From Letharia columbiana (lineage: Eukaryota > Ascomycota > Lecanoromycetes > Lecanorales > Parmeliaceae), in assembly GCF_014066305.1 (NCBI RefSeq), contig NW_023501080.1, positions 124,001-188,000 on the forward strand: a stretch of DNA of 64,000 nt, in the 5' to 3' direction. The notes under the pieces are model-generated. The model did not search any database. It was not told where the DNA came from and saw only the letters and a list, made by a program, of their open reading frames with translations. Position numbers and translations under genes: made by a program. Every line of letters starts with the position of its first letter. The first letter of the stretch is position 1. Shown piece by piece: positions 52,596 to 55,999 of this stretch.

Positions 52596-53411
52596 ATGGG
52601 CCCAATTAAGCACAAAGCTCTCCTCAACGTCGACCTTGGTGAAGGCTTCGGCAATCTGAAATGCGGTCCAGACGAAGAGCTTCTTCCACACATTGACATC
52701 GCCAATGTAGCCTGCGGATTCCACTCCGGCGATCCCCTAATCATGATGAACACGGTCCGCATGTGTAAAGAGCACAACGTCAAGATCGGAGCCCACCCTG
52801 GCTTGCCAGACCTGCAAGGCTTTGGCCGAAGGGAGATGAAGCTACAGCCAGAAGAGTTGACAGCCATTACTGTATACCAGGTTGGCTCTCTCAAGGGATT
52901 TCTGGACAGGGAGGGACTGCCGATGAACCACGTCAAACCGCACGGGACTCTATATGGTATGATGTGTCGGGACTTCGACGTAGCGACTGCGGTCATGAAA
53001 GGTATTCCAAAAGGGGTGCCAGTCTTTGGGCTAGCCGGAACGAATATGGAGAAGGCAGCGAAAGAGGTGGGGGTGGAGTTTTGGGCCGAGATGTACGGAG
53101 ATGTGAAATATAACACTGACGGGATGTTGGTCATTGACAGGATAAAAAAGTATACGGTCAGAATCTACGCGGCTCAGGTGATTTGCTGACCTAGGGACAG
53201 ACCTTGGAAGCTTGAAGACGTCGAGAGACACGTGGAGCAGCAGCTTACTACTGAGTCAGTAACCGCTGTGGATGGCAGTAATGTGCATCTGCCTGTCAAG
53301 GACTACCCGATCTCAATTTGCTGTCATTCAGATTCCCCTGGCTGCGTTGGGATCGTCAAGACAACAAGGGCAGTTTGCGACAAATTCAACAAGGAGCATG
53401 GTTGGTCGTAA
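52596..53411 (+). CDS. LamB/YcsF family, 5-oxoprolinase subunit A (PxpA) homologue
   Basis: PxpA hydrolyses phosphorylated or carboxylated lactams together with PxpB and PxpC in bacteria. Exons 52596-53149 and 53201-53411 give 254 residues, the normal size. Signature motifs are LLNVDLGEGFGN, IDIANVACGFHSGDP, KIGAHPGLPDLQGFGRR and HVKPHGTLYGMM; the C-terminus has YPISICCHSDSPGCV. The ATG at 52596 follows CCACC. It is divergent from the fused PxpC/PxpB-like carboxylase, so all parts of a Pxp-type enzyme are in this locus. It converges on the kinase gene with 166 bp between stops. Confidence 0.93.
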
Positions 53412-53577
53412 TCTATGGTCTATCAAGTCGTTCCCACCAGTTGCCTAGCAGAGTTGATTTTTCAAGTCTTAGTTCCCCCCACCAGCCCCTTCGCCGTCGA
53501 GACTTCCAAGACCCTTTCCCTCGTTGGGCCCGCCGGAGAAGATGCGCTACTGAGAATCAGCATCAGTCTGGTGTCAT

Positions 53578-54432
53578 TCACGCAGGATTCACCTTGACCA
53601 GTTCCATGATCTCTTTATAGATCTGCGCAAGCGGTCTATCGCAGTCCATCTCAAAATACATAAATCAGCCATGGCTCTCTTGAACCGGATGAATAATATT
53701 ATCATTACCTTGACAAGCTTTTCCTCCTGTTCGAAATAGCGGATGATCTCTTCGCTCTCATCAAGGAACCCTTGGTACCGTTTTTCGAATATGGCCTCCG
53801 TGTCGTCAACGCGGCCAGAGGTCTTTGCTCGGTTGAGCACGCGTTGAAGCAAGGTCTCTCTAGACCCTTGAAACAACAACATTGCCTTGATCTTGCAATT
53901 CTACATACTTGTCAGCGCTCATGTTCTGGCTCTTACTGCAGCCTTTGATAGTCTTCAGCACTAACGCTAGCTTCGAACAGCTTCGTCTGGTCCACACTCC
54001 TGGGGAAGCCGTCCAGCAGGATGTGAGTCTTTCCTGCTTTGACACTGAAGACAATAGCGTCCTCCAAGATACCCTGAACGGTTTCCTTAGGTACAAGCTT
54101 GCCGTCTCGCATGTAGGCCACGATGTCGATCCCCTGCTTCGTCAATATTTTGTCTGCTCCGGCTCTGAGAAGGTCGCCGACAGACAGGTGCAAAACGCCG
54201 AGGTCGGTCACCAGTCTTGCGCATTGCGTGCCTTTGCCAACACCTGGCCCGCCTGAAAGTCTTCCGTTAGCAGCGTATGCGAAGAAAGGATCAAAGCGGA
54301 GGATGCTTTACCAATCACGCAGATGATCTGCGCCTGTTCCAGCTCACTTGGAGGGCTTGTAGCTCCTCCTGCTCCGTCCAGCGTATTCGTTTGGTCCATC
54401 TTCGCCATGATTGTCCAAGATCTCTTCTGCAT
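53578..54432 (-). CDS. UMP-CMP kinase-like nucleoside monophosphate kinase
   Basis: Adenylate-kinase-fold enzyme that phosphorylates UMP/CMP (Ura6/CMPK type). Four exons (54432 or 54408-54312, 54252-53966, 53891-53709, 53649-53578) give 212-220 residues. The P-loop is GGPGVGKGTQCARL. NMP-binding blocks are HLSVGDLLR and DGKLVPKETV, then HILLDGFPRS. The lid has NRAKTSGRVDD, with both catalytic arginines, then RYQGFLDES. Compared with housekeeping Ura6 it looks divergent around LFEASIKAMLLFQGSRETL. It is head to head with the viperin gene, 450 bp apart. Whether this is the only UMP-CMP kinase of the genome decides if it is dedicated to viperin. Confidence 0.88.
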
Positions 54433-54885
54433 GTGATGATGTGAGTTTTGAGCTTGTCAAACGGTACGGGACCTTCTCCGGATATATGTCCTTAGAAGGC
54501 ATCAGTACGCAGCAGTATGCGACATTCTTCGGCGTTTGCGCGCTTCTTGCCTCTTTTCTATTCGCTACCATTCTTTGTTACCATAGAACAAAAAGGTGTT
54601 TCCTATCCTGTTTCTCCCGCAGCTTGTTTGTCTCCTGTGCAGCGGTCTGGCGCAGAGTCCTCTAAAGTCATTCATTAGTTTTGAGACATCTTTAGGCAAA
54701 CAGAAACTGAGACGTGAGGCCTTTCACTGAGTCACACGGGGTTGTTCATGATTCTGCCTTGCGCTGGCATCCCAGAAGCATCTTGTTCGGTCTAGCCAAA
54801 CAGCCTCATAGCATAAATACCCAGCAGACTGCTCCTTAGTTTCTTAAATAACCAATAGTCTAGCACTCATATCACACCACACAAG
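54433..54885. promoter_or_regulatory. Shared divergent promoter, nucleotide kinase / viperin
   Basis: 453 bp between start codons. A TATA-like CATAAATACC lies about 75 bp upstream of the viperin ATG, followed by a short leader ending CACACAAGATG. No known stress element is recognisable. Confidence 0.5.
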
Positions 54886-55999
54886 ATGTATCTTGCAGTG
54901 GTTTTCCTAGCTCTGCTGACAATCGCTCTAAGTACCTATTTCTTATCAAAGAATACCCAACTAAGGGAAAAAATTCAAGAAGATGCAGACGCTCAGATCT
55001 TGAAGCCGAAGGAGGGGAATGGAGAAGAAGATACAAAGACGAGGATTCCAATATCAGTCAACTACCATCTCACACGGCAATGCAATTACAGCTGCGGTTC
55101 GTCACATCTGAACTGGTCCAACATTCCCCTTGAATCGTGATACTTATCTATCCTCTATACCCCTAGGTTTCTGCTTCCACACGGCAAAGACATCCCACGT
55201 CGAGCCCCTAGATAACGCTAAGCGCGCCATGCTCCTCCTCAAAGAAGCCGGCATGCGCAAAGTCAACTTCGCCGGCGGCGAGCCCTTCATGAACGCCAAG
55301 TTCTTGGGCCAACTAGCACAATACTGCAAATCCACACTCCAGCTCGAATCCGTCTCTATCGTCACAAACGGCAGCAAAGTCACCCCCACCTGGCTCGCCG
55401 AATACGGCAAATACATCGACATCATGGCCGTATCCTGCGACTCCTTCGACGAAGCCACCAACGTCAAGATCGGCCGCGGCACAGGCAAGCACTTGCAGAA
55501 ATTCAGACAACTCGCAGGGCTATGTGAGGAGTATGGGGTCATGTTCAAGGTCAACACCGTCGTCAACAGGTACAATTGGCAGGAAGACATGAACGCCGCC
55601 ATCCAAGCCATGGGCCCGAAACGCTGGAAATGCTTCCAAGTGCTCATCATCGATGAAGAGAACGGTGGCGACAAGACGCTCCGCGATGCTCGGGAATTCC
55701 AAATCACTGGCGAGGAGTTCCAGTTCTTCTGTGACAAGCACAAGCACAATGCGTGTTTTGTGCCAGAGGGGAATGGGGTGATGAAGAGTTCGTATTTGCT
55801 GCTGGATGAGTATCTCTGTTTCTTGAATAAAGGGGTGAAGGGGAAGACGAAGAGCATCTTGGAGATTGGCGTGAAGGAGGCGATGAAGGATGTCTATTGG
55901 GATGAGGAAGGGTTTCAGGAGAGGGGTGGGGAGTATCCTTGGACCAAGCCAAGCACAGGTGGGTGTGGGGAGGGAAAGAATCCTGAGCTTGAGTTCTAG
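54886..55999 (+). CDS. Viperin-like radical SAM enzyme (RSAD2 family)
   Basis: Viperins convert CTP (or other NTPs) to 3'-deoxy-3',4'-didehydro chain terminators. Exons 54886-55096 and 55167-55999 give 347 residues. The N-terminus is a hydrophobic helix (YLAVVFLALLTIALSTYFL), consistent with ER or lipid-droplet attachment as in vertebrate viperin. The intron is inside the cluster motif; splicing gives NYHLTRQCNYSCG then FCFHTAKTS, so the CX3CX2C iron-sulfur signature is complete. The SAM-binding GGEP motif is NFAGGEPFMN. Further family blocks are SIVTNGSKV, VSCDSFDE, FKVNTVVNRYNWQEDM and KRWKCFQVL. The C-terminus is longer and more Gly-rich than vertebrate RSAD2 (no ending WSK...DW). Head to head with a UMP-CMP-kinase-like gene. 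Function inferred from complete motifs. Confidence 0.95.

What the first reader, a model, noticed from the sequence alone, without database searches (positions are those of the whole stretch)
53578..55999. Fungal viperin head to head with a UMP-CMP kinase: a conserved antiviral neighbourhood
Seen: a complete radical-SAM viperin (CX3CX2C and GGEP motifs, N-terminal hydrophobic helix) and a complete nucleoside monophosphate kinase share a 453-bp divergent promoter. Known: viperin makes the chain terminator ddhCTP from CTP; vertebrate RSAD2 neighbours CMPK2, a UMP-CMP kinase that feeds it, and prokaryotic viperins also often neighbour nucleotide kinases. Inference: the same two-step module has been kept or reassembled in this fungus, possibly against mycoviruses or as a competition metabolite. 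The kinase sequence looks divergent from housekeeping Ura6.
Basis: partly seen in the sequence, partly recalled or inferred. Interest (0 to 1): 0.9.

Follow-up and report, generated by a model that had tools for sequence, protein, structure and literature searches.

The report
Fungal viperin paired with dedicated kinase
A lichen-forming fungus carries an antiviral-type enzyme gene (viperin) back to back with a kinase that may feed it, and the same pairing appears in distant fungi with a kinase from a different family than the one in animals, so it looks like a separately assembled version of a known partnership.

Summary
The window is Letharia columbiana. A complete viperin (54886-55999 +, two exons, 347 aa) and a five-exon ADK-family kinase (54408-53469 -, 236 aa) are divergent, 477 bp apart (453 from an upstream ATG). 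The kinase is not housekeeping Ura6: a canonical Ura6 lies on contig C132 (40% identical). The named linked kinases fall in one clade apart from Ura6 (95/91). It is not the vertebrate module kept: the kinase is ADK-type, whereas kinases beside 80 prokaryotic viperins are thymidylate-kinase-like (9 loci) or Cytidylate_kin2-like (3). Best reading: an independently assembled, maintained two-gene module in which the kinase raises nucleotide supply for ddh-nucleotide synthesis. Recurrence is shown; chemistry, co-expression and antiviral role are inferred. Viperin-kinase linkage in eukaryotes is already reported in general (Shomar 2024, recalled, not readable here): new variant of a known kind.

The parts
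54886..55096 (+). viperin exon 1: N-terminal hydrophobic stretch and first part of CX3CX2C
55097..55166 (+). viperin intron, 70 bp, GT..AG, phase 1, inside the cluster motif
   Evidence: two listed relatives (P0121, P0123) have this region read through or truncated there
55167..55999 (+). viperin exon 2: FCFHTAKT, NFAGGEP, C-terminal LEF (fits the CIA targeting tripeptide)
54312..54408 (-). kinase exon 1 (alternative upstream ATG at 54432)
53966..54252 (-). kinase exon 2: P-loop GGPGVGKGTQC, HLSVGDLLR, DGFPRS
53709..53900 (-). kinase exon 3: TSGRVDD lid
53593..53649 (-). kinase exon 4 (missing in the deposited protein P0001)
53469..53546 (-). kinase exon 5, stop TAA
54409..54885 (.). shared divergent intergenic region, 477 bp (453 bp from ATG 54432)

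Best explanation
A dedicated two-gene module kept over long times in Pezizomycotina fungi. Viperin (radical SAM, probably membrane-anchored, cytosolic Fe-S protein) converts a pyrimidine NTP to its 3'-deoxy-3',4'-didehydro analogue, an RNA chain terminator. The divergently transcribed kinase, an old paralogue of the Ura6-type kinases, is co-induced from the shared promoter and raises CDP/UDP, hence CTP/UTP, while viperin works. Shown: both gene models, the separate Ura6, the recurrence of the pair, the separate clade. Inferred: membrane anchoring, substrates, co-expression, antiviral purpose.
For: Viperin motifs and solved fungal relatives. P-loop, NMP-site, DGFPR and lid arginines are invariant in 11 aligned kinases. 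The genome has four ADK-family genes: window kinase, Ura6 (C132), two long-lid adenylate-kinase-type genes (C12, C4). Exact contig-length coincidences between listed kinase and viperin rows: 7 among 222 x 120 rows, all over 20 kb, against a mean of 0.01 per shifted control for contigs over 20 kb: Usnea florida, Lasallia pustulata, Lepraria finkii (ABVK25_002430/002429), a metagenome contig of 24,300 bases, Trichoglossum hirsutum (M1813_007245/007244), Wilcoxina mikolae, Emydomyces testavorans. Clade of 18 rows 95/91; duplication within the lichen fungi rejected, p-AU 0.0008. The LEF terminus fits the CIA motif of PMC10623007 (passages); 99 of 120 listed viperin relatives end in that motif. In mammals the kinase partner is reported to raise ddhCTP about 4-fold (PMC10058120, passages).
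Against: No enzyme, expression or virus data. Same contig is not adjacency: consecutive tags exist only for Lepraria and Trichoglossum, and the Emydomyces contig is 2.76 Mb. Of the 17 clade rows other than the window, only 6 have a matching viperin contig; Aspergillus, Cladonia, Alectoria and others show none in the rows listed. 113 of 120 listed viperins show no matching kinase contig (lists are cut at 120 rows and clusters give one contig length). Lasallia has a second viperin (P0211) on another contig with no kinase seen. NCBIfam: UMP_CMP_kin_fam is matched below its cut-off (146.9 against 207.6), and the adenylate kinase model TIGR01360 scores slightly higher (154.3, cut-off 284.1), so base specificity is open. 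The best PADLOC model for the viperin is 'not associated with kinases' (225.2 bits) over 'associated with kinases' (205.1); these are prokaryotic models. The two trees disagree on the Aspergillus kinases, and some branches are long. The AU group was named after seeing the tree.
Confidence: 0.62

Rival explanations
1. The kinase does not feed viperin but handles its product: it re-phosphorylates ddh-nucleoside monophosphates, so that the analogue is kept active or recycled.
For: In the NMP-site motif HxSxGD, 17 of 18 clade rows have Val and Usnea has Ile, where 16 Ura6-type fungal rows have Ala and three AK1-type rows Ser, which would fit an altered substrate; housekeeping Ura6 presumably already makes CDP/UDP.
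Against: Four kinase-HD fusion rows and a plant row also have Val, so the residue is not specific to the pair; no assay.
Confidence: 0.15
2. Inherited neighbourhood without joint function: two genes that happen to have stayed close.
For: No expression data here; only two relatives show consecutive tags; most listed viperins show no matching kinase contig.
Against: Consecutive tags in both Lepraria and Trichoglossum and the same 332-kb contig in Wilcoxina, which are of different classes (recalled); pairing of viperin with other kinase families in mammals and prokaryotes.
Confidence: 0.13
3. The pair makes a secreted or intracellular nucleotide-analogue metabolite against competitors or symbiotic partners rather than against mycoviruses.
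For: Several of the fungi with the pair are lichen-forming (recalled).
Against: Pair also in fungi that are not lichen-forming as far as I recall (Wilcoxina, Trichoglossum, Emydomyces). No exporter or biosynthetic cluster was searched for.
Confidence: 0.08

Closest known systems
Vertebrate RSAD2-CMPK2 pair
   Same: Viperin gene adjacent to and inverted relative to a nucleotide kinase gene (PMC10058120, passages).
   Different: CMPK2 is of the thymidylate-kinase family (recalled), and is reported as mitochondrial and to make CTP from CDP; the fungal kinase is ADK-type.
Prokaryotic viperins with kinases (PADLOC pVip PDLC02904, fusion PDLC02905)
   Same: Viperin beside or fused to a kinase; the window viperin matches these models (205.1 and 191.5 bits).
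   Different: It matches the model of viperins without kinases better (225.2 bits). Neighbour kinases in 80 loci are thymidylate-kinase-like (9) or Cytidylate_kin2-like (3); the window kinase matches no PADLOC model.
Ura6 / UMP-CMP kinase
   Same: Best solved relative is yeast uridylate kinase 1uky, E 4.9e-45.
   Different: 40% identical to Ura6 of the same genome and in a different clade.
Fungal viperins of Trichoderma virens (6b4c) and Thielavia terrestris
   Same: Same enzyme family; CTP as substrate and UTP as a putative one (PMC8124187, passages).
   Different: The passages read mention no kinase partner.

Membership tests
viperin (RSAD2) | radical SAM core with CX3CX2C and GGEP | tested here: met
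viperin (RSAD2) | curated family model above cut-off | tested here: met
   NF038283 241.8 over 180; TIGR04278 401.4 is below its 450
viperin (RSAD2) | C-terminal signal for cytosolic Fe-S insertion | tested here: met
   ends LEF; motif from PMC10623007
viperin (RSAD2) | makes a ddhNTP | not testable with these tools
   needs an assay
Ura6 / UMP-CMP kinase family | ADK family with P-loop, NMP site and short lid | tested here: met
   PF00406 E 3.5e-33; motifs
Ura6 / UMP-CMP kinase family | TIGR01359 UMP_CMP_kin_fam over its curated cut-off | tested here: not met
   146.9 against 207.6 on the 215-aa model; TIGR01360 adenylate kinase 154.3 against 284.1
Ura6 / UMP-CMP kinase family | orthology to Ura6 | tested here: not met
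   separate clade; own Ura6 on C132
CMPK2 (thymidylate-kinase-like) | PF02223 Thymidylate_kin domain | tested here: not met
   no PF02223 match at E 0.001; that the domain defines CMPK2 is recalled

The most novel reading that the evidence does not exclude
Filamentous ascomycetes carry an ancient, dedicated viperin-kinase module whose kinase was recruited from the ADK/Ura6 family, independently of the thymidylate-kinase-type partners of animals and bacteria: a further convergent origin of the same antiviral partnership, possibly with a kinase tuned to viperin's substrate or product.
Probability: 0.55. Interest if true: 0.75.

Novelty: new variant of a known kind. Interest (0 to 1): 0.6.

Why it matters
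Antiviral immunity of fungi beyond RNA interference is poorly known (from general knowledge). A recurrent pair offers a direct handle: two genes to delete together and one metabolite to look for. Repeated pairing of viperin with different kinase families would argue that nucleotide supply is a general limit on viperin defence.

Tried and rejected
Sole Ura6: rejected, since three other ADK-family genes exist in the genome. Duplication of Ura6 within the lichen fungi: rejected. A second viperin in this genome: the only two matches are the two exons of this gene. A second thymidylate kinase gene in this genome: both matches lie side by side on C93. ADK-type kinases beside prokaryotic viperins: two weak profile hits, which Pfam places in Cytidylate_kin2. 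Viral contigs: 13 loci encode a relative, not followed further. Papers: the ten searches show titles and abstract starts only, and searches listed 20 of 22, 20 of 28, 3 of 4 and 20 of 26; none of what was listed names a fungal viperin-kinase pair. Shomar 2024 and Bernheim 2021 are not held, so a prior report there cannot be excluded. Structure prediction was not run.

Full report
What it is. The window lies at G000:C45:124001-188000. A deposited protein of Letharia columbiana, HO173_008988 (P0001), is 100% identical to the window kinase over 89% of the query and sits on a contig of 457,904 bases, the length of C45. The organism is therefore taken to be this lichen-forming fungus.

Gene models. 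Viperin: exons 54886-55096 and 55167-55999, 347 aa. It carries CNYSCGFC and NFAGGEP, an N-terminal hydrophobic stretch (by eye), and ends in LEF. That ending fits the [LIM]-[DES]-[WF] tripeptide that recruits the cytosolic Fe-S machinery (PMC10623007, passages); 99 of the 120 listed viperin relatives end in the motif. Kinase: five exons, 54408 to 53469 on the minus strand, 236 aa. The deposited protein skips exon 4. Scans used the 215-aa model.

The kinase is not the housekeeping one. A Pfam ADK search of the whole genome gives seven matches, which I read as four genes: the window gene; a canonical Ura6 on C132, 216 aa, 39.9% identical to the window kinase over 203 positions; and two long-lid adenylate-kinase-type genes on C12 and C4. 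A thymidylate kinase gene lies on C93. There is one viperin.

The pairing recurs. Protein searches give no genomic context but do give the length of the longest contig of each cluster. The seven are Usnea florida (1,016,308), Lasallia pustulata (1,158,130), Lepraria finkii (983,560; ABVK25_002430 and _002429), a metagenome contig (24,300), Trichoglossum hirsutum (230,833; M1813_007245 and _007244), Wilcoxina mikolae (332,409) and Emydomyces testavorans (2,762,881). Only the two pairs with consecutive tags, plus the window, point to adjacency; the 24.3-kb contig shows proximity; the rest show the same contig. 113 of 120 viperin rows have no matching kinase contig. Both lists are cut at 120 rows (2752 viperin matches; 213 and 2833 kinase matches) and clusters report one length, so this is weak evidence of absence, but it does not show how common the pair is.

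Phylogeny. In a tree of 42 hand-picked rows, 18 rows including the window and all six named linked kinases form one clade (95/91); the metagenome kinase P0063 was not in the tree. Of the 17 clade rows other than the window, 6 have a matching viperin contig and 11 do not. Ura6 of Letharia and of Lasallia (P0296) lie outside with other fungal Ura6. Forcing the lichen-fungus kinases together with the two lichen-fungus Ura6 costs 57 log-likelihood units, p-AU 0.0008; that group was named after the tree was seen. In one search, with 45 other rows and without the Wilcoxina, Trichoglossum and Emydomyces kinases, support for the comparable split was 85/84 and the Aspergillus kinases fell on the other side. 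So a deep split from Ura6 is well supported; the outer limits of the clade are not.

Function. The active-site motifs are present and invariant in 11 aligned sequences. In the NMP-site motif HxSxGD 17 of 18 clade rows have Val (Usnea Ile), 16 fungal Ura6 rows Ala and three AK1-type rows Ser; four kinase-HD fusion rows and a plant row also have Val. NCBIfam gives the adenylate kinase model TIGR01360 slightly more bits (154.3) than the UMP-CMP model TIGR01359 (146.9), both below cut-off, while the best solved relative is yeast uridylate kinase. Base specificity therefore cannot be told. In mammals CMPK2 lies adjacent to and inverted relative to RSAD2, is said to make CTP from CDP and to raise ddhCTP about 4-fold (PMC10058120, passages). 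Viperins tested are said to use CTP, and UTP is a putative substrate of a fungal one (PMC8124187, passages). The most economical reading is substrate supply; NDP to NTP conversion would rest on a general NDP kinase. This step and the antiviral role are inference.

Comparison with prokaryotes. One scan of prokaryote genomes found 119 relatives and kept 80 viperin loci. Of 283 neighbouring ORFs (up to two of at least 100 aa on each side), a cluster of thymidylate-kinase-like proteins is found at 9 loci and a Cytidylate_kin2-like cluster at 3 (one member of the first and two of the second confirmed by Pfam). The profile of the fungal kinase finds only two weak hits, both in the second cluster. 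[quoted passage not shown] PADLOC's best model for our viperin is the one for viperins without kinases (225.2 bits), ahead of the kinase-associated one (205.1) and the fusion (191.5). The fungal partner is thus of another kinase type, and the likeness to the animal and bacterial pairs is convergent.

Is it new? Viperin linked to kinases is known. I recall that the abstract of Shomar et al. 2024 speaks of genetic linkage of eukaryotic viperins with nucleotide kinases; the paper is not held, and it may already cover fungi. None of the listings of ten literature searches names the fungal pairing. PMC10732462 (passages) mentions fungal viperins and does not use the word kinase. I file it as a new variant of a known kind, interest 0.6.

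Noticed in passing
P0048, P0051, P0058, P0059: Fungal proteins that join this type of ADK kinase to an HD_3 domain (P0048 confirmed; the others by the precomputed Pfam column); linkage to viperin could not be tested.
   Followed up: partly
L026, L028-L032, L039, L042-L044, L062, upstream of viperin: In 11 of 80 prokaryote viperin loci, 9 of them methanogens, a divergently transcribed gene of one family sits next to viperin; the member scanned has only sub-threshold winged-helix hits. By eye its N-terminal half recalls a CARF-type sensor, untested.
   Followed up: partly
window 52596-53411 (+): A LamB/YcsF (5-oxoprolinase subunit A)-like gene, named by recall and its ends read by eye, converges on the kinase with 57 bp between the stops; an upstream minus-strand gene looks biotin-carboxylase/allophanate-hydrolase-like (recall).
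   Followed up: no
P0001, deposited HO173_008988: The deposited kinase protein skips the fourth exon seen in relatives.
   Followed up: yes
L099, L100, L101: Three contigs of the viral collection encode viperin relatives at 28-30% identity over most of the query's length.
   Followed up: no
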